From contig JAJTUP010000013.1 in NCBI GenBank assembly GCA_021399435.1, positions 310,001-374,000 of the forward strand: DNA of 64,000 bases, given 5' to 3'. The DNA is from Diaporthe sp. PMI_573 (lineage: Eukaryota; Ascomycota; Sordariomycetes; Diaporthales; Diaporthaceae). Below the pieces are notes generated by a model. It was not told the origin of the DNA. It did no database searches and was given only the letters and a program-made list of their open reading frames with translations. Numbering within the stretch: the first letter of the stretch is position 1; every line of letters begins with the position of its first letter. The translations under genes and the position numbers were made by a program. Positions 2,303 through 63,600 of this stretch are shown here, piece after piece.

Positions 2303-3447
2303 ATGTCCAACGACTCGCAAGTCTACGCAAAGACCGCCGACTCGGCCATCAACAGGCACAAGGAGAGAGGTATGACAACCAAAACACCGACAGAGTATTG
2401 ATGCCTGGCAGTCCATCCAAGTACGCGGCACTGACAAGCACCCGTCAGGCCACTATGATGCCGAGACAGTACATGGCATAATCAATTCCACCCCAGTCGC
2501 CCATGTCTCCTTCATTCCAGACCCCTTGGACCCCAAGCCAGTGGTGCTCCCAATGATTGCCCGTGTTGGATCCTTCGACGGCCAAGAGCCCGCCGTCTAC
2601 ATCCACGGCTACGTCTCGGCCCGCATGTTCAGGCCCCAGACGGGACGCCCAGGCCAACAGCAACCCGCCGGCGCCGGCGACGGCGACAGCGACAGCGACC
2701 CCGGGTTCCCAGTCTGCGTGGCAGCCACCAAGATCGATAACCTTGTCCTGGCCCTCACTCCCTTCAACCACAGCTACGACTACCGCAGCGCCGTTGTCCA
2801 CGGCACGGCAGCCCTGCTAAACCCAGGCACCAAGGCAAACCCGGCCAACCGTGACGAGATCAAATACGCCCTGCGCCTCATCACCGACTCCATGGTCACA
2901 GACCGCTGTTCGTATCATTCTTCTCCTTCTACGGATCCCCGTCTTTCATGTTTTGGAATGTTCCAGAATGCATCACTTCAGGACCCGTAGCAGGACTAAC
3001 GTAATACATAGGGGATAACAGCCGCGTTCCTGACGAGGCCGAGATCGCTGCTACGCGTATCCTTAAGGTGCGAGTAGAGTCTGCGTCTGCCAAGATTCGT
3101 GACTCTGGGGTTAGTGAGGATGCCAAGGACTGTTCGTGTCACTTTTCTCTTGCAACGGATCCCCGACTTTTATGTTTTGGAATGTTCTAGAATGCAACAC
3201 TTTAGGATCCGTAGCAGGACTAACGTCACCATTAGTGAGGAACGTCGAGACGACTGCGCGGGTTTGGACTGGGTCTATACCGTATGTCGAGATGCTGGGC
3301 GAGCCGCGGCCGGCTGAGACGAACAAGGTTGCTAGTGTACCTTCATATGTCCAGGATCATGTTAGGGTCCATAATGAGAAGGCTGGTGGACAGGCTGTAT
3401 CGGGTGGGTTGGTCGGCAAGGTCTTGGGTTCGTGGCTTGGGCGGTGA
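2303..3447 (+). CDS. FMN-binding split-barrel protein (pyridoxamine-phosphate-oxidase-like)
   Basis: Four exons, 2303-2369, 2449-2907, 3012-3131 and 3236-3447, join in frame to 285 residues. The protein resembles the fungal flavin-nucleotide-binding family of pyridoxamine 5'-phosphate-oxidase-like proteins. Recognisable segments are RHKERGHYDAE near the N-terminus, YIHGYVSARM, the central strand KIDNLVLALTPFNHSYDYRSAVVHGTA (quoted in part as LTPFNHSYDYRS), and a C-terminal SRVPDEAEI...KVRVESASAKIR helix region. The substrate is not known for this family. Introns 2 and 3 are both 104-nt family A introners and bracket a 120-nt exon. The assignment rests on overall pattern, since the family has no short catalytic signature. 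Confidence 0.85.
2908..3011 (+). mobile_element. Introner-like element, family A (copy A1, 104 nt)
   Basis: Phase-1 intron. It carries the family landmarks CTACGGATCCCCGTC, GTTTTGGAATGTTCCAG, a CCGTAGCAGG arm and GGACTAACGT as branch site, and ends ATAG. Confidence 0.9.
3132..3235 (+). mobile_element. Introner-like element, family A (copy A2, 104 nt)
   Basis: Phase-1 intron in the same gene as A1. The arms ACGGATCC and GGATCCGT are perfect reverse complements. It differs from copy A3 at 3 sites and from A8 at 5 sites by eye. Confidence 0.93.
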
Positions 3448-7383: not shown

Positions 7384-9207
7384 CTACGATGAACCACTAT
7401 TGTCTGCGCAAGAGAAAGCACCACCAATCAGACCCTGGGCGTAAGCATCGATGATGTTCTGTATCACACCATACGTGCCACCAATTGTCAAAAACACGGC
7501 AAGAAAGACCATGAACCAGTTTAGCCAATAGACTATAATCTGCCACCAGTTTCCCTGGCGGTAGTGCTGGTGGTCGTAGATCCACAGGTAGCCCGGCAAA
7601 CCCAAGGCCAAGGGAGCAAAAGTCAAACTTCCTGCGAGGGCTAGTAGATAGTTGAAGATTGGGATACCAGAGGCCACGAGAAATGAGACGACCGACATGC
7701 CAAAGGTACAGCCGAGCCATGCAGACCAATGAACGAACGAGTTCTTCTGAAGATGAACAGAGTCCCGGAGTATCCGAACAAAGATGTACTTAGCAGCGAC
7801 ATGGATGTAAAGACAGGCGCTCACCATCAGGCCAGTAAGGCCAATACCATATGCGACCTTTTTGACGACTTCGCCTGCGCTCCCGAGAGACGGCGAGGCA
7901 ACCCATTGACCGCAGTAGCGATAGACGACCAGGGAGAAGGTCAGGTAGGAAGCTGTGACAATTCCCACTGCAGCATTCAGAGTCAGTTCTCAGAGCACCA
8001 AGGGAGCAGTTTCATACAAATAGGGGAAATATGGGGCCAAACTGTTGCCATAGCCTATCTCAAACCACCAGCGTAACAAGTTCTTTGAGGCTAGACCACA
8101 GAGGGGAGGTGTTTCTTCTGGAAGGGGTTAAGATTGTATCCAGAAGCTGCTTACTGCAGAGGTACACGGCTTTGTTGTAGTCCCTAGGCTTTTTCATTTC
8201 TGAGATGACGGGCAGGAACGCGCTTGTTCCAGCCCCAGAGCAGAAGATGGTAGCGACGGCTAATGGTGACGTTAGTCCTGCTACGGATCCTAAAGTGTTG
8301 CATTCTAGAACGTTCCAAAACATGAAAGTCGGGGATCCGTTGCAAGAGAAAAGTGACACTAACAGGTGACGCCAGTGACAAATGTTGGGTTGCCGATAAC
8401 ATGATAGCCGAGATCAAAATCGCCTGTCCTTGGGGCAGCTGCGGGTCTGTCTAACTGCGTAACGGCAACTCTGTAGTTCGGAGTAATGTTAGCAATGTTT
8501 TGGCGGTAGGAGAATCTCCGGGTACATACACGACAATGAATACAGCAACGTAGACCGATAGAAAGCCGGCCCATGTCAACCATGCGATCTTCTCGAACTT
8601 GCGAGCACTGGCAAGAATGAAAACTGCCACCGTTGCCAACAACATGAAGTAATTTGTGCAAATTGCATGGTCCGAGAGGGCGTTGAAGGCAACAGAAGTT
8701 CCGAAGATTCCAGATGCGCCAACTATTGCGTAGGTAACAAGGAACAAGACCCCTACTACTTCTTTCAGCCAAACACCGCCAACGACATTGGCCATGTCGG
8801 CGATGGAGTGACAGCCAGCATGAGAGTTGCGGAAGTTGCCCTGAATGATGGCGCAGTATGTGTTCAGGAACTGCCAGCCCAGCACATTGATGGCACCTGG
8901 CAGGGCACCAAGAACGAACATTGCTGAAGGAATTGAAAGAACACCAGTGGCGAAGATGACTTTCTGAAAATGTCAGCCTCAAATACACGCCTGAGCACAT
9001 CAGCATGGCGTGTGGCATCTTACCCTTAAGAAAAATGACCGAGGCGTGGACCCAGCTAACTGTGCGAAAGTCTACTGTGCCCTCGCCTCTCTTGAAAACT
9101 TCAAAGGCATCCTCGGCATTCTCGAGTTTTCCAGCGTCGATACTCCCGCTGCTCCTGGCTGGCACCGGCGTAATCGCGTCAGCCTTTTCCGAAGTGCTGC
9201 GAGACAT
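7384..9207 (-). CDS. Amino acid permease, AAAP family (Neurospora MTR-like)
   Basis: Five exons, 9207-9024, 8959-8530, 8470-8364, 8259-8155 and 7967-7384, join to 469 residues. After a hydrophilic N-terminal tail of about 55 residues the protein is almost entirely hydrophobic, with about eleven membrane segments. The first contains VIFATGVLSIPSAMFVLGALPG, typical of the AAAP/Aa_trans fold. Relatives include the Neurospora MTR neutral/aromatic amino-acid permease. It should act at the plasma membrane as a proton-coupled importer; the substrate cannot be read from sequence. Intron 1 ends at an unusual AAAG acceptor that restores FLKVIFATG. Intron 3 is a family A introner and intron 4 a family B introner, only 105 nt apart. 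Confidence 0.92.
7968..8154 (-). mobile_element. Introner-like element, family B (copy B1, 187 nt)
   Basis: Starts GTAAGCAGCTTCTGGATAC and ends ACTGACTCTGAATGCTGCAG. Contains an internal inverted repeat CTTCTGG/CCAGAAG near its 5' end. Phase 1, inserted between exonic CA and T. Confidence 0.88.
8260..8363 (-). mobile_element. Introner-like element, family A (copy A3, 104 nt)
   Basis: Phase-1 intron in the permease gene, differing at 3 of 104 positions from copy A2 in another gene. Arms ACGGATCC/GGATCCGT intact; branch GGACTAACGTCA; ends ATTAG. Confidence 0.93.
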
Positions 9208-9939: not shown

Positions 9940-11088
9940 TTAGCTGTCTAGTGGGTCCCACGATTTCTTCAGCATGGCCCCGCGCTCTGCAGGCATAATA
10001 GCCCCCTGTGGCGGCACATTCTTCCCCTTAAACTCATCGCAGATTTGCTCCATCGTAACAAACTCGACCCCCTCGTGCTTCTTGAAGTGTTCAATGAGCC
10101 TCTCGTGCATCAGCAGCGCGTGTGGGCGGCCAGAGACGTCCGGGTGGATGGTGATGGGGAATATAAACTCCTCGTACCTAAGTAAGGCATTAGGCCTGCT
10201 ACGGATCCTAAAGTATTGCATTCTAAAGCATTCCAAAACATGAAAGACGGGGATCTGTGGCAGGAGAAGAGTGATGCTTACTCTCGATAGAAATAGTCAA
10301 AGTGGTCGCGCCATATATCCTCGACGTCCCGTGCGTTGACGAATCCGTGACTATTAGGACAATCTTTTATGAACATCATGGGAGGAAGATCGTCCAGGTA
10401 CCAATTCGCCGGGATCTCGACGAGTCCGGTCTCCTGGCCTCTGACGAGAGGCTTCATCCAGTCGCTCGGCTTCTTTTTGTAGTCAATCTTGGTCCACTCG
10501 TCGCCCGTCCGGAGGTAGTACGGTTGGCAATCGTGATGGCTCATGCTGTGGTCGTACTCGATACCGTAGTCTAGGAGCAACTGTGCTCCCTCCTTGCTGG
10601 TCTCCCACCACGGGGCAACACTGCCTCTCGGGGGCTTGCCTGCAAACTCTGTGAGCATGTGGTATGTTTTGTCGAGGATTTCACGTTGCTGATCGATGGT
10701 CATGTCGGTGGGGTTCTCGTGGGAGTATCCGTGGAGACCTATCTCGTGGCCGGCGTCTCTCACGGCAGCCATGTCTTCCGGGAAGGTTTCGAGGCTGTGC
10801 CCGGGAATGAACCACGTGGCCTTCACGTTGTACTTTGCGAGGAACTTGAGCACCCGTTGTACGCCGATGGTTCCCGCGAAGTAGCCTGGCAAAGAGTTTT
10901 CGTTAGCTCTGCCAGTGTACCTGCTGAATGTCTACTAACGTGCCCGTCATCGACGAGAAGGCAGACTATGTTTCGGCCTTACCTCTGCTAATGTCGTTGG
11001 AAGAGTCCTCTCCGCCATAAGAGCCAAGCCAGCCGGCTACTGCGTCCACATCAACACCGTAACTCACAAGAACGCGCTTCTTTCCCAT
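9940..11088 (-). CDS. Polysaccharide-deacetylase-fold hydrolase, HpPgdA/PuuE-like
   Basis: Exons 11088-10983, 10885-10282 and 10177-9940 join to 315 residues. NodB-fold landmarks are [20 protein letters not shown] (catalytic-base Asp region), the metal-binding [15 protein letters not shown], and [17 protein letters not shown]. Together these resemble the group containing Helicobacter pylori PgdA and allantoinase-like PuuE more than chitin deacetylases. There is no signal peptide or chitin-binding module, which argues for a cytosolic small-molecule amidohydrolase, perhaps acting on cyclic imides or ureides. The start [11 protein letters not shown] fits the family; an upstream in-frame Met at 11172 is less likely. 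Intron 1 is 97 nt and ordinary; intron 2 is a family A introner. Confidence 0.9.
10178..10281 (-). mobile_element. Introner-like element, family A (copy A4, 104 nt)
   Basis: Phase-2 intron. Donor GTAAGC; keeps GATCCCCGTCTTTCATGT and GGATCCGTAGCAGG. The branch region GGCCTAATGCC is diverged. The 5' arm is altered (ACAGATCC). Confidence 0.9.
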
Positions 11089-11578: not shown

Positions 11579-12720
11579 ATGGATCCTAATATTCCTCGTC
11601 GAATGCGAGCAGCCCAGATCTCAGAAGTCGGTCAGTCCCTCTTAGCCTATATCCTCGAGCAGCACTGATTGGCCTAGCGCAGTACAACAAGCCATACAAG
11701 TTGATTGAGAGAGACGTACCGACTATTCGTGATCATGAACTTCTCATCAAAGTGCACGCAGCCGGATTCTGCCACTCGGACCTACAGGTGTTGCAAGGGC
11801 AGTTCAAATCGCCCTTGGGCATGATCCCGTCTCACGAACCTGCTGGTGTCATCGTTCAAGTTGGCGCGAGCTGCAGCGGCGACTGGCAAATCGGAGACAG
11901 GGTCGGAGCACTCAACTACAAGAACGCGTGTGGGAAATGCAGCGGCTGTGGATTGACAAGGCGGACGAGTGGTCAGCTGGACCCCAGGTTCTGTGACAAA
12001 CGAGAGACTGCGGGCTTCCAACACGACGGGGCCTTTGCCGAATACCTTGTCATAGACCCAGACACAACAGTTCGCCTACCACCCTCTCTGTCGTTTGACC
12101 AAGCAGCACCATTAATGTGTGCCGGAGCCACCGTATGGGGTTCTTTGGAGAGAGCAACAGCTGGATTGAGTCCCGGGGAGCCCGTTGCTATTGTCGGCAT
12201 CGGTGGCCTTGGCTTCTTGGGCTTGCAGTTTGCGGCTGCGATGGGATTCTGCACCATCGCCGTTGATAGTCGGCCAGCCGGAAGGCAACTGGCCGTTGAG
12301 ATTGCCAACGAAAGCCTGCGGCCTGCGCTGGTCGTCGACTCAGGCGCGGTAAATGCCACCTCGCAAATCCTGGATTTCACCAAAGGAGAGGGTGTCGCGG
12401 CCGCAGTGGTATGCACAGACTCTCTTGCAGCCAACAATTGGGCCCTGAACTTGCTGAGGACTGGGGGCATAATGGGTATTTTGGGCTTGCCCGCCGAGAA
12501 CTGGAGATTCGACCCAAGCGTCATAGTCTTCAAGGAACTTACGATCCGTGGCAGCTACGTTGCAAGCAAGCATTCCACGGAACGAATGATGAAGACAGTA
12601 GGAGAGGCAGAAATCTTCTCTCACGTTACCTTGGTACCATTTGATGGAATCCCCAGAATTGTAGAGACATACCAAGATAGTGCCTTCAAGGGTAGATTGG
12701 TTGTTCAGGTCGCAAATTAA
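11579..12720 (+). CDS. Zinc-dependent alcohol dehydrogenase (MDR superfamily)
   Basis: Exon 1 is 11579-11630 and exon 2 is 11678-12720, giving 364 residues. GroES-like catalytic domain: GFCHSDLQVLQGQF (catalytic zinc Cys/His) and SHEPAGVI. Structural zinc: ACGKCSGC plus a more distant Cys, with a longer loop than usual between the third and fourth cysteines. Rossmann domain: VAIVGIGGLGFLG. It should interconvert an alcohol and an aldehyde with NAD(P) in the cytosol. The 47-nt intron needs acceptor GGCCTAG to keep frame. Divergent from the deacetylase gene. Confidence 0.92.
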
Positions 12721-15210: not shown

Positions 15211-16987
15211 ATGTCCGTTTTCTTCAAAGACATATCTGAGTGCGCAACAGTTCCCCGCCATCATTGAATAGCCACATCACTGACATTGACGCTGAAGAGA
15301 CAACCCTGTGCGGCAGGGTGACGTTGAGAAAATCCTTCAGCCTCTCGGTTTGACTATCAAAGCTGAAGAGTCGGCCGATTACCAGAGACTGCTCGCCGCG
15401 GTCCACGACTGTGCGACTCGCATCGATAGTCTCCCGGATTACCAGCCGGTACCCGGCATTAAGAGATATCCCCGAGAGAATGTGCATCTTCCCACGGTCG
15501 AAGAACAACAATTTGGTCATGCCTGGGCATATCGATTCCTGATTCGTGGCGACGACTCGGCCCGGGACTCATCTTTGGTGTCCCTCAGGGGAAAAAGTGT
15601 CTGTATCAAGGACTGCATCGCTGTTTCTGGCGTTCCTCAGTTCTACGGCAGTGACGCCTTTGCTCCATGGACCCCTTCGACTGACGCGATAGTGGTCACG
15701 CGAGTTCTGAATGCCGGTGCTGATATCCTGGGCACAGCGACATGCGAGCACTTCTGCAACTCGACAGCATCCTTCACTAGCGCCCAGGGGACCATCGAGA
15801 ACCCCTACAGGGAGGGCTATTCCACAGGAGGCAGCACCTCGGGCGGTGCGGCGCTCGTGGGCTCCGGCACGGTCGACATTGCACTCGGCACGGATCAAGG
15901 GGGCAGCATCCGTGTTCCTGCATCGTTCTGCGGGTGCGTCGGGCTGAAACCGACCCACGGTCTGGTGCCGTTCACGGGCATCACGAGCGGTGATGCAATC
16001 GACGACCATGCCGGACCAATCTGCCGGTCCGTCTTTGAAGCTGCGCAATGTCTCGATGCGATAGCAGGCTACGATGGGATTGACGACAGGTCTCTGGGCG
16101 CTGCCTGTCACGGCTCATTCGGCTATTGTGCGGCTCTTCAGTCGAGCTCTGGCCGGTTGGACGGGATGAAAATTGGTCTTCTGATGGAAGGCTTCAGCCA
16201 TGAGATCGTTGACCCCGGAGTAAGGGACCATGTTCTCGCAGCTGCTCGGAAGCTCGAGTCACTAGGAGCGATCGTCGAGGACGTTTCGATTCCACTACAT
16301 CTGGAAGGACCATCCATTTGGACGATCCAGCAGCGCATATCAGGCTCCTCGTGCATCTTGGGAAAAGCTTCCGGGCGGCGGGGCCTCGGCCTGACCGAGT
16401 TTGAAAAGGCACGGTTGCCTTGGACCGACGCAAGCTTCCAGAAACTATTTCCCTCAACTAAGAACACCGTCATCAACGGCTTATATCTAGCTGAAGAATT
16501 CCCCGGTCTCTACAGCAAAACGGTGAATATTGGCCGACAGATCAGCGATGCCTATCAACGAGCTTTCCAGTACTACGACGCCATAATCATGCCAACGACA
16601 CCGTTCGTGGCACCGAGACATGGCACCAGGGACTCGGTGCTCCCGTCGTTCGAGCCCACAATAGGCCTGACAACAAATACTGCTGTGTTTAATGTAACTG
16701 GTCATCCTGCCATGTCAATACCCGTGGGCTTCCTGCCCGCGAAAGATGACGCAAGAGTGCAGCTGCCTGTCGGTATGCAGATTGTGGGCGGGCTATGGCA
16801 GGAGAAGAAAATCCTCAAAGTGGGGCATACATGGGAAAAGAATTTTGACTGGCAGAACATAAAGACTGACGATCGGGCATGCAAACCTGTTTCCGACTCA
16901 TCAGCAACGATTTGTGCCAATGGGGGCACAGTTGTACTTGATGCCACAACATCACCCAGTCTGAAGAGGGCGAAGCTTGCCGCTTGA
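15211..16987 (+). CDS. Amidase-signature (AS) family hydrolase
   Basis: Hydrolyses carboxylic amides with a Ser-cisSer-Lys triad. The Lys is in GKSVCIKDCIAV and the serines are in STGGSTSGGAALVGSG and TDQGGSIRVPASFCGC, all present. The C-terminal SIPVGFLP...LPVGMQIVG segment is also typical. The body exon runs from 15298 to 16987. I place a first exon at 15211-15239 (MSVFFKDIS) and a 58-nt intron at 15240-15297 with donor GTGCGC, a CTGAC branch and acceptor GAAG; this gives 572 residues in frame. The N-terminal exon is less certain than the rest. Converges with the SDR gene. Confidence 0.88.
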
Positions 16988-18810: not shown

Positions 18811-21800
18811 ATGCCGTCCCACAATAGCAACCATTTGAGCACAAAGGGATCGCAGCCGAATTCGACTACGGTCAGGCGGAGAAGGCGGACCGGTCAGAGC
18901 CTGGTTGACAGTCACAATTGCGGTCCTGATGCGCGGTTATGTCCTCATTGTGGCCGGACATTCAAGCGTACCGAGCACTTGGAGCGTCACGTACGCACTC
19001 GTCAGTCATCCCACTCCTTCACGCCCCCATCTCCAGCCGCCCCCATGCGTTGGATCCTTCTGTAACTAGTCTCCACGCATGGTGCTGCCCGTACCTTGAT
19101 GCTTACCTGCACCTGTCCCATTCTCCAGACACCAAGGAAAAGCCCTATGTTTGCTGCCAGTGTGGAGCCGCTTTTGCCCGGCGTGACCTGTTGACGCGCC
19201 ACCAGCGCATTGCCCTCCACGAAGATGCATCCGAGTCTCCGGATGGCCCCACGGAGCCGGACTCTGGGGAGCAGAATCACGGCCCGGTCGAGGCCGACTT
19301 GGCCGCCGCCGTTTCCCTTTCAGGCATGAGCGTCCATCATTGGCCACAGCAACAACCAGCACCACCGCCTGAGCTGTATCCTATGGCAGCCTCAAGGAAC
19401 GGTACTCTCGTGGATGACGGCCCATACCAGCAAGGTCTACTGGCAGAGCCTTTCTATGAGAGTGGTATGTCGTCGGTTCCGAGTAATTTCACTTTGACTT
19501 TATCACCTTCAGAACAGAGCTGACCCGATTGAGCCAGGAAACCAAGATGCCGTTGGGTTTGATGCTCACTTCCGTAAGCTTCACTCTTCTCCTGTCACAT
19601 ATCCCCCCGTCTTTTATGTCTTGTATGTTTTGGAATGTTCCAGAATGCAAAAATCTAAGCTCCGTAGCAGGACTAACGTCATACGTAGGAGAATTTGCAA
19701 GTTTTCTTGACGGGGTTGGACTGCATGCGGAATGGAGCCCATACTTTCAACGTCCTGACAGGGACGATGAGGTTATTGACCCAGCAATGAGGGACTCGAG
19801 GGCCGGCACTGCCACCCCAGGAGCTCCCCACAACAGAACTCGGCCTGGAACGCCTTTCAGCTCATGGCTGCCCTCAGCGCCGACTGGAAACCGCATATCG
19901 GAGGCTCTGCCCGACACTAGTAGGTTAAAACTCAGTACCGCAGTGTGTACATGAGTGTCAACACCTGACGCTAACTAACACTCGGACAAGACCCTCGTTC
20001 TGTTGAAACAGACTCCCAGCCCTATCGTATCTTGGAGGATCAGCGCCTCCGTCTCAACGCCTCGATTGAAACGTTTCGTGACGTCCTCGATCCCAAGTTC
20101 AAGTTTCCTTCACGTCACGCACTCACGCGCTACTTGACATCCTTTTTCGAGGGCTTTCACTCCCACATGCCCTTCATTCACACGCCAACATGGCGGATAT
20201 CCGAGCACTCAATCGAACTTACACTCGGCCTCGCAGCGATTGGGGCGCAGTACTGTTTCGAGCATCGCATGTCCGAAAAGTTATTCCATGCTGGCAAGAC
20301 CATACTCATGCAGAGACTCGCCCGTGAGTCCGACAAATTCGGTCCCAAAACCACTTCCTTCCTCCATCTCCACACCATATCATCTCAGAAGCGCGAGTCG
20401 AAACTCGTCCAGGAGAGAGAGTGGGGCACATGGGAACCCATTGAGACTGTCCGGGCCCTGATCGCCCTTATGGGCTACGCCACCTGGGAGTCCAGCGCCC
20501 ATCTGGTACAAGAGGCATTCGCCCTCCAGGCGCTGCTAGCCCAAGTCCTCCGCGAGATTGGTATACACGAGGATGACCTCCCGGGGATTCTTGTGGACCA
20601 ACCCACACCGCAGGCCGCCTGGTACGCATGGGTGCAACAGGAATCAGTGCGACGGGCTAAGCTAAGTAAGAACCACTCTTCTCCTTCTACGGGTCCCCGT
20701 CTTTCATGTTTTGTAGTGTTCCAGAATGCAACACGTTGGGCTCCATAGCAGGTGACTAACACCTAGAAGTAGCTTTTTCCTTTATGAATACCCACAGCAT
20801 CGCATACGACGTGTACCCAGTGCTACGCAGCAACGAGATAGGGCTTCGACTGCCTTGTTCGACGGGAGAATGGAAGGCTCAGACAGCACAGCAGTGGCAG
20901 ACAGCTCGGCGTGACATTGGGAAACAACAGCTCTTCTTCCAGGATGCACTGTCTCTGCTATTGCGGAACACCGACGGCACGGCGCTTCTCGACCCGATTC
21001 CGACCCCCCTTGGGAACTACTTGCTCCTGCATGGATTGCTGCAGAGGATCTACATTGTCCGTGATCTCTCGTTGCCAGTTATAGACCATTCGGCCTCACT
21101 TCCATGCGAAGAGGTTGATAAGCTCGAGTGAGTCTATCTGACGTCTGCTGTACAGCCATGTTCTCAAGACTGACTATCTGAACCCAGACGTGGCCTGCGC
21201 TCCTGGACCGCTGGGTGGCAACAGGCCCCTGAATCCAGCCTTGACCCAAATAACGAGAACGGGCCCATCCCGTTCACGTCCAGTTCCCTGCTTGGCCTCG
21301 CCTACGTCCGTATTTATCTTCATCTTGGTCCATACCGACTTCTCGAGTCGAGAGACCCGGTATGCATTGCCAAGGCAATCAGCCGGTCACCAACGGTGGA
21401 ACGTGGTGGCGCCGTTATCACCGCGCTACTGTATGCAGCACATATGCTGAGTATCCCAGTCAGGCTCGGCGTTGATCGCGTGGCTCGCAGTCAGGCGTTC
21501 TTTTGGAGCGTGCGGCACTCCCTCTCGGGCTTGGAGTGCGCCGTGCTTCTCAGCAAGTGGCTCTCGTCACTCACTTTGTCGGCCACCACGGCACCGCTCA
21601 GTGGTATGTGAGAGAACAGCCGTTACTCGTGTTCAGTTGGGTTTATTTCTATCTAACAACGAGCCAATAGACAGCGAGGACAGGATCCTGCATTGGGTTC
21701 GGTGTATTGTAGAAGAGGCGTACGACGTTGTCGACTTCGAAGGCGGCGAGGCTGATATCCAGACAGACAGGGACCCTGCCTCCCTGAGTCTGGCCGTTCT

Positions 21801-46670: not shown

Positions 46671-47754
46671 TCACACTTTCTCTTCACTAGCTACCCTCTT
46701 CCCTTTCCAGCATAACCACGACACGGCAATCACCATCTTGATGCCGCCCCCGATCCACAATGCAGCCGGCATACCTGCCTTCGATTTCTGAAGCCAAGCC
46801 CCGATAATTCCACCCGCGACCATTAAGAGGACCGCGACAACCCGACGGTTGCGTTTCACATTCTTGCCAATGGGCGCTATCATCAACGGATCGCTACGTA
46901 TTACGTTAGTCCTGCCACTAGTACTGAAGTGATGCATTCTGGAACATTCCAAAACATGAAGACGGGGATCCGTAGAAGGAGAAAGAATGATACAAACCTG
47001 AATAAATCGCAGTACAGAGACGTCAGTACATTCGTCGGCACCTCGTTGAACCCCAAGACTCGACTTGTCACGATCTGGCCTCCGAACTGGAAGGCCAACA
47101 ACGCGAGTGGCAGTAGGGTTATACTCTCGGTCTCATAGCTTTCGAGCCTCTCGTGCGCTATTGCGGTGCCGAGGGACCGCATACCAAACGCAGGAACCGC
47201 GCCGCTCTGCGCCACCGCCGCCGCGATGAGAATGCAGGCAGACTGTATGAAGAACGAGGCCGCCAGAGTCGCCTTTCCTTTGGGTTGAATACGGCGTGAC
47301 TGGCTGAAGAAGAAGCAGCCGACCCAGAAGCAGATGATGGAGACCAATGCCCTGAGCCAGAGGGTCTCGGCGGCGAAAGGGAGGTTTGCTGTACCGAGAG
47401 CGAGGAAGATGGTGTTCCCTGGACAGCATGTTAGCTTAGACGCGTCGGCGACACACTTGCCAGTAGGCCCGGGGATGAGGTAGATAGGGACTTGCCTGTC
47501 TGCATGCTCACAAACACGCTGCTGGCGTTGAAGGCAACGCTGTCACAAATTCCGGACACGAAGCAGGTCGCAAGCACGGGCAGGTCCGAGTGTGACGGGT
47601 TGATTTCCTCGCGTAGTCTGGTCATGAAATCATGTTTCGGAGCGGCCTCTGTCTCTTGTTGGGGCATCGTGGAGGCGTCAGACGAGACTCTGTCAGTCAG
47701 CATCGCCGGTGTCCCAAGTTGTGAATCCTTTGGAGGTTGCTCTATCGTCGCCAT
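46671..47754 (-). CDS. DUF1275 (YoaK-type) integral membrane protein
   Basis: Exons 47754-47496, 47418-46998 and 46893-46671 join to 300 residues; an upstream in-frame Met at 47844 is possible. DUF1275 landmarks: CFVSGICDSVAFNASSVFVS, QTGNTIFLALG, FQFGGQIVTSRVLGFNEVPT and VLTSLYCDL, with about six hydrophobic membrane segments. The hydrophilic N-terminus of about 50 residues is probably cytosolic. Function in fungi is unknown; transport has been suggested only by topology. Intron 1 is GC-AG with donor GCAAGT. Intron 2 is a 104-nt family A introner. Confidence 0.88.
46894..46997 (-). mobile_element. Introner-like element, family A (copy A7, 104 nt)
   Basis: Donor GTTTGT. Keeps TTCTCCTTCTACGGATCCCC, GTTTTGGAATGTTCCAG, GGCAGGACTAACGTAATACG and TAG. 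The 3' arm is altered (AGTACTAGTGGC). Most like copy A1. Phase 2. Confidence 0.9.
47419..47495 (-). other. GC-AG intron in the DUF1275 gene
   Basis: 77 nt, donor GCAAGT, a GCTAAC branch motif and acceptor GTCCAG. It joins QTG to NTIFLALG, the conserved family sequence; the nearby GT donor gives the wrong frame. Confidence 0.8.
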
Positions 47755-50041: not shown

Positions 50042-51525
50042 ATGTCGAGTGAGAACGAGAATCCTGCTGCCCAACTTCCCTGGGCAGAGCCCGCCTGGCT
50101 CGCGTCCCTAGAGTCGCCTTACTACAATGAGTCCCACAGGAAGCTTCAACTTTATGCCAGGAATTACATCGACCAGAACATCCTCATTCATCATTTGAAG
50201 TGGGAGCATGACGGTGACTGCCCAGATGCAGCAAAAGTGGACTATATCAACTCTGGGCTGCCCTTCGCAAACATACCAACCGAGTACAGACCGCGTGGAT
50301 TTGAACTCGTGGCTGGTATACGAGCTGACGAGTTCGATGTATTCCACTTCATGATTGTCAGTGATGAGATAGGCCGTATAGAGGGAGGCGTCGGCATCGC
50401 GCTGGCAGGAGCAAATTCGATTGGCGTGCCGCCAATAATCGACCACGGCACCGGAGAGCAGAAGCGGCGGTGGCTGCCTGGACTGTTCACGCGAGAAACG
50501 AGCTTCTGCTTGGGGATCACGGAGCCTAGTGGCGGCAGCGATGTTGGCAATATCTGCACCAAGGCCGTCAAGTCTGCGGACGGAAGCCATTACATCGTCA
50601 GTGGTACGAAGAAGTGGATCACAGGAGCACAATGGGCATCGCATATGACAACGGCCGTTCGTACAGGAGGTCCAGGTATCCAAGGCATCTCGATGCTCGT
50701 TATACCTCTCCGCTCGAAGGGGGTGGAGATCGAAAAGATATACAATAGTGGTCAGAACGCCGGTGGGGCGAGCTGGGTGCGCATGAGCAATGTTCACGTC
50801 CCCGTCGAGAATTTATTGGGTCGGGAGAATGCAGGCTTCAAATACATCATGACCAATTTCAACAGGGAGAGGTTTCTCAGTAAGCAACTTTTGGATACAA
50901 TCTTTACCCCTTTAAGAAAAAGCATACCCCATCTTTAGCCCATACAACAAAGACTGTACGGGCTGCAGGTTTTGAAACAGGCTATAGCCACCTTGTGGCT
51001 TACTCTTCACCGTATTGGCATGAAGCTACTTCTTTGGCTCTTTGATAACTGACTCTGAATGCTGTAGTGGCCATTATCTGTAATCGCAAAGCTCGGACCT
51101 GCCTCACCACGGCGATGCAGTACGCATACACCCGCGAGACATTTGGCAAGCCACTTGTTTATCACCAGATTATCCGACACAAGATCATCATGCTGGCTAG
51201 GGAGGTGGAGTCGCATTGGGCATGGCTAGAACAGATCGCCTATCACATACAGATCCATGGGTGGCAAAACGACGACGTTGCAGGGCGAATAGCTCTGGCA
51301 AAGGTGTCAGGTGGTAGGTTGCTGGAGCAAGGTGCGAGAGAGGCCCAACAAATCATGGGCGGCGTTGCGTACCAGAGAAACGGCCCCGGCGGAGGAGGTC
51401 GGATCGAGCAAATCACCCGTGACCTGCGAATGATGGTGGTTGGAGGGGGCTCCGAGGAGATACTCGGGGACCTAGCGTTCAGGCAGGATACAAAAGCAGC
51501 GCAGCGGAAGAGCTCAAAATTGTAG
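50042..51525 (+). CDS. Acyl-CoA dehydrogenase family protein
   Basis: Exons 50042-50879 and 51068-51525 join to 431 residues. Acyl-CoA dehydrogenase fold: N-terminal helices, then LGITEPSGGSDVGNICTKAV (flavin/substrate loop), GTKKWITGAQWASH, VPVENLLGRENAGFKYIM, and in the C-terminal domain YAYTRETFGKPLVYHQIIRH, QIMGGVAYQRNGPGG and MMVVGGGSEEILGDLAFRQ. It oxidises an acyl-CoA or similar thioester with FAD, in mitochondria or peroxisomes; no clear targeting signal is visible. The only intron is a family B introner. Confidence 0.92.
50880..51067 (+). mobile_element. Introner-like element, family B (copy B2, 188 nt)
   Basis: Starts GTAAGCAACTTTTGGATACA and ends ACTGACTCTGAATGCTGTAG. Shares AATCTTTACCCCTTT and ACAGGCTATAGCCACC with the other copies. 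Phase 1, between exonic CA and T. Confidence 0.9.
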
Positions 51526-55497: not shown

Positions 55498-57474
55498 ATG
55501 CACGCCCTAAGCCTTCTGGGGGTAGCCGGAGCTGCTTCCGCCGGTTTCACTACCATCCGAGCCTCGAATTCTAGTGACCCATGGGCCGATTGGAACGAGG
55601 AGACGGCATTCACGATGAAGAATTTCACTGTTACCCCGAAAGGTGTGCTTAATGCCTACGAGAGATGCGGAGGTATCGGTCACTACGGTCCCACTGCCTG
55701 TAGCCAGGGAATAGACGTGACGTGCACGTTCCACAACGACTACTACAGTCAGTGCTGGCCTGTGTCCGACCCAAATGCCCCTGTGAAGCCGAAGCCCGCC
55801 GGACCCAAACCCACGAAGCTAAGCCCTCTTGTCAATAGCAAGCCCGTGGGCTTTGCCTCTGGTGTCACTGGTGGTGGCGACGCTGAGCCGGTCCGACCCA
55901 AAGACGTCAACGAACTGAGCGACCTGCTGCAGGACCCGGAACCCCGGGTCATCGTCATCGACAAGACTTTCGATTACACCACCGCGATGGGGACTGGTGT
56001 CATTGACGGTTGCAAGCCTTGGGGTGATTTGGAGAGTAGATGCCAGGTCGCTCTAGGTCTCGGCGGTGACTGGTGTAACCGCGAGAAGCCAGACGCGCCA
56101 AAGGTACAGGGCTTGGAATTCAACAAGGCTGGAATTAGCCCCCTCTGGATCCGTTCCCATAAGACGATCATTGGCGAGAGTGACAAGGGCATTATTGTGG
56201 GCCGCAGCAGTAAGCAGCCTTTGGATACGAGTTCAACCCCTTCAAGCAGAAACTTCTCCCATCCTTAGCCTGTTCCTCAAACGTTTGCCAGGCTGCGGCA
56301 TTTGAGATAGGCTTTGGTCACACTGCAGCCCAGACCTTCCCATACTTACATGGAACTGCTGCCTTTGTGCTTTAATGGCTGACTCCGAATGCTGCAGTCC
56401 GCATGATGGGCGTCGAGAACATCATTATTCAGAATGTCAAATTTACGAGCATTAACGAGAAATACGTCTGGGGTGGTGATGGTTTGGATGTCTGTAAGTT
56501 TAATGCATCGCTTTAGGCTCTGTAGTAGGTGACTGACACGTGGAAGGGGGATCGAACAACATCTGGCTCGATCACTTAACAATCAGCCGGATCGGTCGTC
56601 AGCTGGTGGTTGTTCACGAAGGAAGCAACCAGAACATTACAATTAGCAGCGTCCACTTTGACGGCTTCAGTCAGTTTCACTCTTCTCTTGCAACGGATCC
56701 CCGACTTTTATGGTTTGGAATGTTCTAGAATGCAACACTTTAGGATCCGTAGCAGGACTAACGTCACCATTAGCCGAGTACAGCAGTAAATGTGGAACCG
56801 AGAGTAGTACATCGCATTATTGGTGAGTTCCGTTCCATTAGGGGTCCCGCGAGAGGCATCCTATATCTGATGGAAAACCGCAGGGGCTCCAAGTTCTCAG
56901 GTCAAGACGACTCCATTACCTTCATCAACAACTACATGGACTACTTCAGTGGTCGTGCGCCGCAGGTGGGAGACAAGAATGAGAGTAGCGTTTCGCTGAC
57001 CCACGTCGTCAACAATGTCTGGGAGGCAGTCTCGTCTGAAGCTCATGCTTTTGAAGTCCTTACTGGTGGTGTTGTTCTTGCTGAAGGAAACTTCATTGTA
57101 AGTACTTTTCCTATCCTTTCGCGGTTCCCCGTCAGTCATGTTTGAGAATGTTCTGGGCCAGTTGTGGAAGGTATCAGGTAATTAACATGCTTTAACTACC
57201 CTAGTACAACACGAGCATCGTCCTTGATGACAGCCACGGAGTTGGGCTGGTCTACACGCCCCAAGGCAATGTTGACGATGCTCTCTGCACCAATGCCATT
57301 GGTCGCCCTTGCATCCCTAACAATCTGGTCCAGAGTGGCCCTTTCAACGCTTCCAAGCCCGCTACCCTCGACGTCCCTGCGTGGAAAGAGCACAGTAACT
57401 ATCCTGTCGCTGAGCCCGCTGACGAGAAGCTCCGCGACAAGGTCAAGGCCAATGCTGGCTTCGGAAAGCTATAG
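55498..57474 (+). CDS. Secreted pectin lyase (PL1) with N-terminal CBM1
   Basis: Six exons (55498-56209, 56398-56493, 56547-56669, 56774-56822, 56884-57097, 57205-57474) join to 487 residues. Signal peptide about residues 1-15. A CBM1 follows at about 50-85 (CGGIGHYGPTACSQG and DYYSQC), then a Pro/Lys linker. The PL1 beta-helix has GFASGVTGGGDAEPV, NKYVWGGD-type NEKYVWGGDGLDV, NIWLDHLTISRIGRQ with the catalytic Arg, the HYW/GSKFSG joint across intron 4, and YFSGRAPQV. It cleaves pectin by beta-elimination outside the cell. Intron 1 is a family B introner, intron 3 a family A introner and intron 5 a decayed family A copy; introns 2 and 4 are ordinary. Confidence 0.92.
56210..56397 (+). mobile_element. 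Introner-like element, family B (copy B3, 188 nt)
   Basis: Starts GTAAGCAGCCTTTGGATACG and ends GGCTGACTCCGAATGCTGCAG-like tail (TGACTCCGAATGCTGCAG). Shares CAACCCCTTCAAG and GAGATAGGCTTTGG with the others; an inner GGCTGC/GCAGCC pair could form a stem. Phase 1, between exonic CA and T. Confidence 0.9.
56670..56773 (+). mobile_element. Introner-like element, family A (copy A8, 104 nt)
   Basis: Donor GTCAGT. Five differences from copy A2. Arms ACGGATCC/GGATCCGT intact; GGACTAACGTCACCATTAG tail. Phase 1. Confidence 0.93.
57098..57204 (+). repeat. Decayed introner-like element, family A (copy A9, 107 nt)
   Basis: Phase-0 intron. CTTTTCCTATCCTTTCGCGG, TTCCCCGTC, TCATGTTT and GAATGTTCT align in order with family A; the 3' arm and the usual branch block are replaced (TTTAACTACCCTAG). 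Old copy or chance similarity. Confidence 0.6.
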
Positions 57475-60671: not shown

Positions 60672-63600
60672 TCAGCCCAGATTCTCACGTATGTGGGTAG
60701 CAAGCTCCGCAGCAAATGGCTCGCGCTGTTTCAACCAGAAGTCAGTGAGTGAACATTTACGTTACCGCCAGGACGTAGCGGTGGCGGTAGTTACTTACCA
60801 TCATTGAAAAGTGGTGCGCATTCTCGACTCTCCTTATCCTTATCTCACTGCTAGGGCACAGCTGATCCCAACCATTGGCTCCAAAATCAGTTCGCCGCTC
60901 AGTGAGGAACTTCATACCTTCTGTGTCGTCGGGGTGAGGTTCGAGCTTCTTGACACCAGGTCGGTCGGTGATGGTGTCTGGCGCCCAAACGATGGACACC
61001 CTCTTAGGACACTTGTTGTGATTCAAAGGCTTCGCATGGTAATCATGCAGCACGTCGATGGATGCATTGAAGTGCGAGATGAGCTTGTCATGCTCCGCAT
61101 CTGAGAGAGTGTGCGTATGCTGCCTTGAGCTGGCTGGTTTGCCATGTTGGCCACCTCCAAACAGATGCAAGGACCTGCAAAAGTCGTAGAAATGGCTCGG
61201 GAGCGGGTCCAAGCCTTTCAGTGGTGGTGGTGAATCAATCAGTATTAGACTGGCAACTTCTTCACCTTGTGCCCCCAGTATCTGCGCCGTTCGATATGCT
61301 AGGACTCCGCCAGCTGACCAACCACCAAGGTGATATGGCCCGGAGGGCTGCCGACGACGAAGTTCGGTCAGATAGACAGCGATGAGGTGATCCAGCGGGC
61401 AGGCTCGTAAGGACTCTGGGTCCTTGAGGAAGGGCGAGTTGAGCGCTACGACGCAAGTATCGGACGCGATGCGTGGAATGCCGGCGTACGAAGTCGCAGA
61501 CCCTGAACCATCTGGGAAGAGGAACAGAGACTTAGTGCATGTGCGTTGTGATCCCTGTATAATAAGTGATGTGCACTTGGCATTTACGACCGCGTCTGGT
61601 AGAAGGCTAAGGTCGTCGGCCTTGACCTCGATCAACTCATCATCCTCCTCCGGGTCGCTAGCAGGGCTGGAAGGCGTGTTGCTGCTGTCGCTTGGGGACC
61701 CACTCTGGTCAGATGAGTCTTGGTCCGATGGTGTTGACTGACCACCCAGAAGGAATGTTCTCAGGTCGGCGACAGTCGGACACTCCGTAAGCAAGGACTC
61801 ATGGTCGACCTCAATTTCGAGCTCATCACGGAATCTGCTGACTATAACAAGCGACAGGAGCGAGTCAATGCCGCTGTCCGTAAAGTGAGTATCGTCGGTG
61901 AGATCAGCCTGAGCCACTCCGCTTTCTTCTGAGACAATCTGAAGAGCACGTTCGACGATATTGGGCTGTCGTGACACAGCAGGAGCTTGCTGCGGGGGAG
62001 GATTATATGCCCCCTTCACCTGGCTGCTCAAGTCCGGGCTCGAGCTTGGCTGTGTTTCTTGTTCACCTCCCTTAAAGAGCTTCTTGAGGTCGCCAATTGA
62101 TGGGTACTCCATGACCATTGACGTGGAGTCAATATCGATATCTAGTTCCTCGCGGAATCTTGCGGTTATGGTCAAGGACAATAGGGAATCAACACCCAAG
62201 TCGCCGAAAAGGCTGGAGTCGGTTAGGTCAGAAACGGCAATGCCGCTTTCCTCTGAAATTATATGCAGCGCAGAGGAAGCCTTGCTTGGCCCGGCTTGAG
62301 TCGATGTGACAGCAGGTGCCGGTGCAGCGAATGGGGCGGCTCGCGGAGCAGCTGACGGAGCAGATGATGTGAGTTGAGGCTTCTGAGCCTTCTTACCGCT
62401 TTCCAGAGACAGAATTACTGATAGTACGCGCCGAGGTACACCTTGTATCTACGGAAATAGTCAGAAAGCTCCTCAGTCAGAGACGAATATGCAGATTGGA
62501 ACCACTTACCGCTAGTTGCTGAAAGCTTGCGACGATCTTGTCACCATCAAAAACGGCCACGTCCCCATGCCAAAGCCTGTCTTTGCCCTCCTGCATGCGC
62601 GTGTAAGTCGTGTACGCCTTTTCAAACTTCATTTCCTCATAAATCTGGAATGAACCCCATCCATGATTCATGAAAACCTCAACATCGAGATCACAGCCGT
62701 CGTTGCAGTTCATAACGAATCCGCAACTCTGCGACAATGCATCGATGATGGCCGGATGAGTGTGGAACCTGTCGTCGATGTTGCGCTTGACGCTTCCAAA
62801 ACTGACCCGACTTGAAGCTTCGAGTGTGTTGCTGTTCAGGACAAACTCATCAATCGCGCGATAGTCGGTGTGGAACTGGGCCAGAGGACGGATCATCCGG
62901 TAGACCATAGGTCGGTTGAACCTTGCAGTGGTCTCAGATGCGATGCCTTTTCGGAGCGCCTGCATTTTCTCCTTGATTAAAGCGGCCTCCCCTTGCAGCT
63001 TCCGTTGGTAAGCTCTGTCCTGGAAGCGGATCACGCAACGAGCGTGCTCCTGAAGCTGCCCCTTGTTGTCGAACGACAAAAATTTGCATGTGGCTTCTTT
63101 CGAAGTCCAGTCCACTTCTGCATGCGCTTGAAGTGGCTGAGGTCCCTGAGGCTTTGCGATCAAGGCCTTTGATATGGTCATGTCCCCGACGTCAACCACC
63201 AGCTGGTCGTCACTTAACTGTGGTTGATACTTTTCCACGAGGTATTTCCCGAGGGAGAGGGCCATGTCCGCATAAACCGAAGGAGTACACAAGGGAATGT
63301 TGTCGACCATGTGCCCCTGGATAAGGGGGTTCATGTCTGGCCGGGTAACGTCGGCCTCGACCACGATATTGACACTGTTCCCGTTGAACCCAGAAGTCTC
63401 ATCCACGATTCTATGAATTGTGGTGGTGTCCAGACGGGAAGAACTGCCCAAGATTAAGGGAGGATCGCCCTTTCTGAGTGACCAGTCATTCACATATTGG
63501 ATCCAGTAGTCTTTGAGATCCCAGCTGTAAGCGGGCAAGGGCACAACCTTGTGTGCCGACGTAAAGTCACGATGGTACTCAGCCCACCGGATATCCGTGC

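What the first reader, a model, noticed from the sequence alone, without database searches (positions are those of the whole stretch)
2908..3235. Family A: a 104-nt introner-like element, nine copies in this window
Seen: introns at 2908, 3132, 8260, 10178, 19574, 20666, 46894, 56670 and (decayed) 57098 share one sequence along most of their length, six being exactly 104 nt, while their exons are unrelated. Each is needed to keep its gene in frame and always lies in the sense direction. Known: introner-like elements were described in several Dothideomycete fungi and in some algae. Inferred: this is an active or recently active intron-creating family in this lineage, possibly not yet described.
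Basis: partly seen in the sequence, partly recalled or inferred. Interest (0 to 1): 0.95.

Follow-up and report, generated by a model that had tools for sequence, protein, structure and literature searches.

The report
Introner-like intron family in Diaporthe-like fungus
A fungus related to Diaporthe carries a short intron that has recently copied itself into many unrelated genes, nearly always reading with the gene and apparently without a scar, and in two places it seems to have landed inside the start signal of another repeated intron, which offers a way to study how new introns are born.

Summary
Confirmed. The nine copies are at the stated places, six exactly 104 nt. Genome-wide the 26-nt core has 218 matches (112 forward, 106 reverse; reversed-pattern control 0). 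Of 74 distinct copies, 60 restore the reading frame when removed (chance about one third), 66 score as sense, and 58 give a stop-free junction against 12 if kept. No target-site duplication in 62 copies. At 2908 and 3132, 23 of 23 chosen relatives are gap-free at both junctions, and an identical protein on a 1,462-nt contig looks like a spliced transcript. This is an introner-like element (ILE) family in a Diaporthales fungus, a new member of a known kind; a library search for Diaporthe with introner found no paper. Four points go further: two composite introns with this element in the donor of a second repeated intron (one readable in either order); strong regional concentration without local hopping; young copies fold better; donor positions +3/+4 hypervariable among near-identical copies. 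Copying through excised intron RNA is the likeliest mechanism, inferred, not shown.

The parts
2908..3011 (+). family-A ILE, 104 nt, subfamily a (donor GTTCGT); first of two ILE introns in a flavin-nucleotide-binding-type gene (PF12900)
   Evidence: frame; Pfam; chosen relatives gap-free 23 of 23 at the junction
3132..3235 (+). family-A ILE, 104 nt, subfamily b (donor GTTCGT); second ILE intron of the same gene
2303..3447 (+). host gene of the two copies; exon 1 starts at 2303, and an ordinary first intron ends just before the exon reading GHYDAETVH
8260..8363 (-). family-A ILE, 104 nt, subfamily b, in a gene that looks like an amino-acid transporter (recalled resemblance, not tested)
10178..10281 (-). 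family-A ILE, 104 nt, in a polysaccharide deacetylase gene (PF01522; the Pfam match ends before the junction)
19574..19688 (+). family-A ILE, 115 nt, with a short internal insertion
20666..20766 (+). family-A ILE, 101 nt, with GTGACTAAC at the branch site, in a fungal transcription factor gene (PF04082)
46894..46997 (-). family-A ILE, 104 nt, subfamily a, in a DUF1275 gene (PF06912)
56670..56773 (+). family-A ILE, 104 nt, subfamily b
57098..57204 (+). decayed family-A ILE, 107 nt, 57 bits
7968..8154 (-). family-B repeated intron (donor GTAAGCAG, 187 nt); the family that holds family-A copies in its donor elsewhere; not the finding itself

Best explanation
This is an introner-like element family: a roughly 104-nt spliceosomal intron that carries its own donor, branch site and acceptor and has multiplied into many unrelated genes of one Diaporthales genome, nearly always in the direction of transcription, making a new intron each time. 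Most likely the excised intron RNA, held together by its imperfect inverted repeats (a long interrupted stem, an apical hairpin of up to 8 bp and a short near-terminal pairing), is put back into the coding strand of transcribed DNA, by reverse splicing or by capture at a break, and copied into DNA. SHOWN: the family, ends at GT..AG, sense and frame in most of the sample, seamless protein continuity in the cases examined, absence of TSDs, near-identical copies at unlinked places, better folding of copies that have close relatives. INFERRED: the RNA intermediate, the insertion chemistry, and that folding helps copying instead of being a by-product.
For: 218 core matches in 83.7 Mb with 0 in the reversed control. 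60 of 74 in frame after removal, 66 of 74 sense, 58 of 74 stop-free junctions against 12 of 74 if retained; at 2000 random positions 576, 1030 and 790. Of ten spliced readings given to Pfam (chosen from 72), eight have a match that spans the junction, and the three compared with solved structures (polygalacturonase, GH47, GH3) have no gap within three residues of it. At 2908 and 3132, 23 of 23 chosen relatives are gap-free at both junctions. P0121, 100% identical over 94% of the query, joins exon 1 and lacks both ILEs on a 1,462-nt contig. No TSD at nine registers in 62 copies. In 67 copies closeness to the nearest other copy correlates with fold z (rho -0.46, p 1e-4) and with self-complementarity (rho 0.67). 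Neighbours are not closest relatives, as expected for a diffusible intermediate. One identical pair lies on C35 and C173.
Against: No mapped RNA-seq and no polymorphic empty site within the species. RNAalifold on 47 copies gave no useful common structure (3 pairs, -0.76 kcal/mol), and three of eight window copies fold about as well as their shuffles (z +1.08, -0.34, -0.68), so structure is not needed for splicing, and its role in copying rests on a correlation that sequence decay alone could give. Inverted repeats are also typical of DNA transposons. The unevenness between contigs is not predicted by a plain RNA model. At 90-nt flanks 8 of 74 copies do not score as sense and 14 of 74 do not restore frame; of the 16 that fail either, four have another copy within the flank, several agree at other flank lengths, and L035, L065, L066 and L007:2810 agree in frame at none of the five lengths shown.
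Confidence: 0.7

Rival explanations
1. A non-autonomous DNA transposon (MITE-like introner) with inverted repeats, moved by a transposase and made harmless by carrying splice sites.
For: Imperfect inverted repeats along the element; regional clustering; most introner families outside ascomycetes fit DNA transposition (PMC9860276, passages read).
Against: No TSD in 62 copies at shifts of -4 to +4; insertion seamless at protein level where examined; all 14 pairs of copies less than 5 kb apart have the same strand and 66 of 74 copies score as sense, although a symmetric DNA element should land both ways before selection; no local hopping.
Confidence: 0.15
2. Intron RNA captured during repair of double-strand breaks, random in place, as proposed for Hypoxylon (PMC8469720, discussion read), instead of spliceosomal reverse splicing.
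For: Only weak exon bias around insertions (T at -1 in 25 of 62); two copies one nucleotide apart; insertion inside donors of other introns.
Against: Random capture should give both orientations before selection, and some small deletions; neither was seen in the cases examined, though selection can hide the first.
Confidence: 0.3
3. The copies are old orthologous introns or duplicated gene segments that look alike by gene duplication or conversion.
For: Some genes hold several copies (L055, L028, L007).
Against: Flanks of distant copies share similarity only where I attribute it to repeated introns lying in the flank; relatives are uninterrupted at the 2908 and 3132 sites.
Confidence: 0.02

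Closest known systems
[quoted passage not shown] 2021, PMC8469720; abstract, results parts 1-2 of 3, discussion and legends part 1 of 2 read)
   Same: Class Sordariomycetes; short canonical introns (an example of 93 nt there, 104 here); imperfect self-complementarity; TTCTAGAA near the middle; seamless, no TSD, no clear exon motif; functional only on the coding strand; youngest copies most symmetrical.
   Different: Dozens of copies there, over 200 core matches here; no parent stwintron of the same sequence was met here (not searched for systematically); the TTCTAGAA forms one arm of an apical hairpin here, not the centre of symmetry. Sequence homology could not be tested (their sequences are in supplements not held).
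Introner-like elements of Dothideomycetes (van der Burgt 2012, recalled; Collemare 2015, PMC4457414, abstract and introduction read)
   Same: Hundreds of near-identical spliceosomal introns in unrelated genes, recently gained, decaying towards ordinary introns; stable predicted structure.
   Different: Another class of fungi; sequences were not compared; no ILE-inside-ILE composite is mentioned in the parts read.
Introners of the 2022 survey (Gozashti et al., PMC9860276; abstract, one section and passages read)
   Same: Sequence-similar introns along their whole length, enriched in genes; ascomycete families there also lack TSDs.
   Different: Ascomycete families are said to lack TIRs; this one has imperfect internal repeats. 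Whether a Diaporthe genome is in their table is unknown (supplement not held).
[D1,2] stwintrons of Xylariales with near-terminal inverted repeats (Fekete et al. 2025, PMC12403724; abstract, results part 1 of 3, one further sub-section and discussion read)
   Same: Near-terminal pairing that starts at donor position +5 and uses bases between branch site and acceptor; L037 here holds a composite of the same type.
   Different: There the stwintron copies itself as one unit; here a single-intron element has apparently landed in the donor of another repeated intron, once between positions 1 and 2 and once between 2 and 3.

Membership tests
Introner-like element (fungal ILE) | many near-identical introns in unrelated genes | tested here: met
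   218 core matches, control 0; flanks compared in 67 copies; identity up to 100%
Introner-like element (fungal ILE) | canonical spliceosomal intron, in sense, needed for frame | tested here: met
   60 of 74 in frame, 66 of 74 sense; one probable transcript; no RNA-seq
Introner-like element (fungal ILE) | new position, absent from relatives | tested here: met
   2908 and 3132 only: 23 of 23 chosen relatives' proteins continuous, several of them apparently intron-naive genomic predictions
Introner-like element (fungal ILE) | stable predicted secondary structure in young copies, lost with age | tested here: met
   mean z -2.76 for 26 copies with a relative at 95% or more, -1.75 for the other 41; but no alignment-wide consensus structure
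DNA-transposon introner | target-site duplication | tested here: not met
   62 copies, nine registers
DNA-transposon introner | terminal inverted repeats of 6 nt or more at the extreme ends | tested here: inconclusive
   long imperfect symmetry, but position 1 never pairs and the first ten positions pair patchily in 59 copies
DNA-transposon introner | one splice site taken from the target | tested here: not met
   both splice sites lie inside the repeated unit and exon flanks show no GT or AG rule in 62 copies; donor +3/+4 variability stays unexplained
Hypoxylaceae cropped sister introns | sequence homology to them | not testable with these tools
   their sequences are in supplements not held
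Hypoxylaceae cropped sister introns | symmetry centred on the palindrome TTTCTAGAAA | tested here: inconclusive
   TTCTAGAA present in subfamily b, but as the 3' arm of the apical hairpin
[D1,2] stwintron (L037 composite only) | internal intron between donor G1 and U2 of the external intron; frame kept only by two-step removal | tested here: met
   equally readable as [A2,3] because the next exon base is G
[D1,2] stwintron (L037 composite only) | splicing intermediate in RNA | not testable with these tools
   no reads available

The most novel reading that the evidence does not exclude
New introns of this family can be aimed at, or specially tolerated in, the 5' splice sites of existing introns, so that introner insertion is a direct source of stwintrons; and the donor bases +3/+4 are rewritten in the course of insertion (for example at the 5' end, where copying of the intron RNA finishes), leaving a molecular trace of RNA-templated insertion.
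Probability: 0.25. Interest if true: 0.85.

Novelty: new member of a known kind. Interest (0 to 1): 0.6.

Why it matters
How introns are gained is a long-open question. A young, high-copy family with near-identical copies, in a group with several sequenced relatives, gives many fresh insertions for reading the insertion rules. The two composite introns suggest a concrete route from introner insertion to stwintrons, whose origin is debated, and the donor hypervariability gives a testable trace of the copying mechanism.

Tried and rejected
A viral reservoir: a 22-nt piece of the core hit two viral contigs that share the same phage-like ORFs; the element profile finds nothing there, so I take it as a chance match. 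A mixed assembly as cause of the uneven density: PF00562 gives three loci, as one fungus should have (recalled), and there is one 5.8S match, so one genome. Dense contigs as accessory-gene contigs: of 14 proteasome loci one, of 10 chaperonin-family loci none, and among the rows from 88 scored P450 candidates (817 in the first look, so capped) five loci lie on the eight dense contigs, which are 8% of the genome; no clear enrichment or depletion (loci counted by eye). Local hopping: rejected. Consensus RNA structure by RNAalifold: none of use. Compensatory pairing at positions 7/-7 (A-U against G-C; 42 of 59 paired, mean of shuffles 33.4, 0 of 200 as high) is kept only as a hint, since it separates subfamilies and may be one event. 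General enrichment of donor-like motifs at insertion points: 3 of 79 copies, one of them (L022) a coincidence in coding sequence, against a mean of 0.6 and a maximum of 3 in 64 equal windows; not significant by itself. The one-nucleotide exon in L028 as a proven case: not proven, since the reading without it is also open for 56 residues.

Full report
Observation. A nucleotide profile of the nine named copies recovers these nine in the window, eight at 85-103 bits and the decayed one at 57 bits. Six are 104 nt; the others are 115, 101 and 107 nt. The window is bases 310001-374000 of contig C35 of an 83.7-Mb assembly in 217 contigs. Among named protein matches the best are Diaporthe (84-86% for an amidase, with Colletotrichum close behind; 82% for the host gene of 2908; 94% for an OPT transporter), so the organism is a Diaporthe or close kin; the ITS also resembles Diaporthe from memory.

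Copy number. The 26-nt core with up to three mismatches has 112 forward and 106 reverse matches and none for the reversed pattern. A 5' pattern with up to two mismatches has 115, control 0. A 3' pattern gave 190 matches with 56 in its control, so I do not use that number. From the fetched loci and the window 74 distinct copies with settled ends were taken; four hits whose ends could not be settled were dropped. The loci are the best matches plus four 5-kb regions asked for by place, so the sample leans to young copies.

Introns in sense. With 90-nt flanks, the best coding frames before and after the copy agree after removal in 60 of 74 (8 and 6 in the other two registers); the spliced flanks score better in sense in 66 of 74; 58 of 74 junctions are stop-free against 12 of 74 if the copy is kept. 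At 2000 random positions the same measures give 576, 1030 and 790. The coding score was trained on seven long ORFs of the window. Requiring both frame and sense, 58 of 74 pass at 90 nt and 65 of 74 at one or more of five flank lengths, a lenient count. Of the 16 that fail either at 90 nt, four (the L037 and L028 pairs) have another copy within the flank, several agree at other lengths, and L035, L065, L066 and L007:2810 agree in frame at none of the lengths shown; they may lie in untranslated parts or other introns. In the window itself 46894, 56670 and 57098 score slightly better antisense at 90 nt. Phases 0, 1, 2 of the best joint frame are 15, 34, 25.

Protein evidence. All ten spliced proteins given to Pfam (chosen from 72 readings) match a known family; in eight the match spans the junction, in two (window 10178, L074) it ends before it. 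The three compared with solved structures have no gap within three residues of the junction: polygalacturonase (2iq7), GH47 mannosidase (1fo2; a gap follows seven residues on) and GH3 (9ul7). For the host gene of 2908 and 3132, 23 relatives of one source class (lgn), chosen from 120 listed, have no gap within three residues of either junction, 23 of 23 at each. Several of these carry odd residues before GHYD, as when a caller that ignores introns reads through the first, ordinary intron of genomic DNA; these therefore show empty sites at both ILE positions, among them P0122 at 91% identity. P0121 is 100% identical, sits on a 1,462-nt contig and joins exon 1 (window 2303) correctly to exon 2 with both ILEs gone, which I read as a transcript. 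Against this: P0161, on a 19.7-kb contig, also shows a clean exon 1-2 join, so either that species lacks the first intron or not all predictions ignore introns.

No scar. In 62 copies no register from -4 to +4 stands out above reshuffled pairs in matches between 5' and 3' borders; flanking exons show only weak biases (T at -1 in 25 of 62).

Structure. Single copies fold into a long interrupted stem with an apical hairpin; z is -3.2 to -3.4 in three of eight window copies, but +1.08, -0.34 and -0.68 in three others. No useful alignment-wide structure emerged from 47 copies. In 67 copies of at least 70 bits (7 of 74 dropped), closeness to the nearest other copy correlates with fold z (rho -0.46, p 1e-4) and with self-complementarity (rho 0.67); 26 copies with a relative at 95% or more average z -2.76, the other 41 average -1.75.

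Distribution. Three listings (capped lists of the best matches) give 169 distinct copies. Eight dense contigs with 6.7 Mb hold 102 where 13.5 are expected for an even spread, while eight sparse contigs with 18.0 Mb hold 20 where 36.3 are expected; both sets were chosen after seeing the counts, and lengths are unknown for ten of the contigs with copies. Neighbours are not more alike: mean identity within 5 kb 0.758 against 0.794 in permutations (p 0.96), same contig p 0.79. So the source seems to diffuse while the targets are regional. The cause is unknown; the three gene families looked at do not explain it.

Composite introns. In L037 a family-A copy stands between G1 and T2 of the donor of a second repeated intron, family B (40 matches scored of 90 candidates). 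Removing both, with the G, gives an OPT transporter that matches PF03169 (E 1.1e-119) and aligns gap-free with D. ampelina and six other relatives at both junctions; leaving the G shifts the frame. Because the next exon base is G, the reverse order (B into the acceptor of A) cannot be excluded here. In L012 a copy stands between T2 and A3 of another family-B donor; removal of both at B's own acceptor is open for 17 residues, and with one further 39-nt intron, which I picked by eye, for about 80, with the best coding score in that frame; no homologue was checked. In L028 two copies are parted by one nucleotide, T. Keeping it gives the better coding score at 90-150 nt and 131 open residues; dropping it is also open, for 56 residues; at 60 nt a third frame scores best, and no Pfam family matched. 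Two donor insertions in 79 copies are not many against all introns, but both hit family B, and in L012 only A-into-B is a simple parse.

Donor hypervariability. In 20 young subfamily-b copies, which differ from their consensus mostly by private changes, columns +3 and +4 differ in 10 and 4 copies against a mean of 0.39 in the other columns; donor type does not track other differences (p 0.30, low power). In 42 b-type matches among the 100 listed, +3 differs in 17 and +4 in 7 against a per-site rate of 0.018 elsewhere; 27 copies identical at the other 23 bases carry four donor types (16 CA, 5 TC, 3 TA, 3 GA). The pattern had N at these two positions and a mismatch cap elsewhere, which favours the contrast somewhat. 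Subfamily a shares CA, TC and TA. Several source introns with different donors, exchange between copies, or rewriting at insertion are all open.

Mechanism. Both splice sites lie inside the unit, insertion is scarless where examined and in sense, neighbours are not relatives, and young copies fold best: this fits return of excised intron RNA to transcribed DNA better than a transposase. Reverse splicing and repair capture are not told apart here.

Known or new. Fungal ILEs are known from Dothideomycetes and, as symmetrical (stw)introns, from Xylariales (papers named under Closest known systems, read in part). Searches of the held library: introner (67 papers, 40 listed); Diaporthe with introner (0 papers); Diaporthales with intron gain (3 papers, listing; one read in passages, on another matter); introner-like with Sordariomycetes (3 papers, two of them on Hypoxylaceae); stwintron (10 papers listed, five of which I read in part); introner with horizontal and transposon since 2023 (2 papers). 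None of the titles, abstract starts or parts seen describes this family; the 2022 survey's species table was not available. I file it as a new member of a known kind, with the composite introns and the donor variability as the parts that may go beyond.

Noticed in passing
window 7968-8154 (-), 56210-56397 (+), about 50924-51094 (+); L037, L012, L067: A second repeated intron family (B), about 160-190 nt, donor GTAAGCAG, end GAATGCTGCAG or similar; 40 genomic matches scored of 90 candidates; two copies hold a family-A copy in their donor.
   Followed up: partly
L037:1586-1850 and L012 (minus), near C35:424100: Two composite introns with a family-A copy inside the donor of a family-B intron ([D1,2] or [A2,3], and [D2,3]).
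   Followed up: yes
L028:1356-1565 (-): Two family-A copies separated by a single nucleotide; coding score favours keeping that T as a one-nucleotide exon, but both readings are open.
   Followed up: partly
L055 (C35:509554, 510004, 510342): One transporter-like gene holds three family-A copies within 800 bases.
   Followed up: partly
whole genome, contigs C35, C173, C161, C145, C138, C160, C169, C196 against C1, C112, C57, C207: Family-A density differs more than twentyfold between contigs, without local hopping; cause unknown. On C1 four of the five copies lie in the last 0.27 Mb.
   Followed up: partly
donor positions +3/+4 of young copies, for example window 2908, 3132, 8260, 46894, 56670: Hypervariable donor bases among otherwise near-identical copies.
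   Followed up: partly
window 11590-12720 (+) and 15296-16987 (+): A dehydrogenase-like ORF (by eye) and an amidase ORF lie near each other; several relatives of the amidase are listed as one protein with both domain types (P0027, P0054, P0073, P0078, P0085).
   Followed up: no
window 60757-62448 (-): End of a polyketide-synthase-like gene (two carrier-like repeats and a thioesterase-like end, by eye).
   Followed up: no
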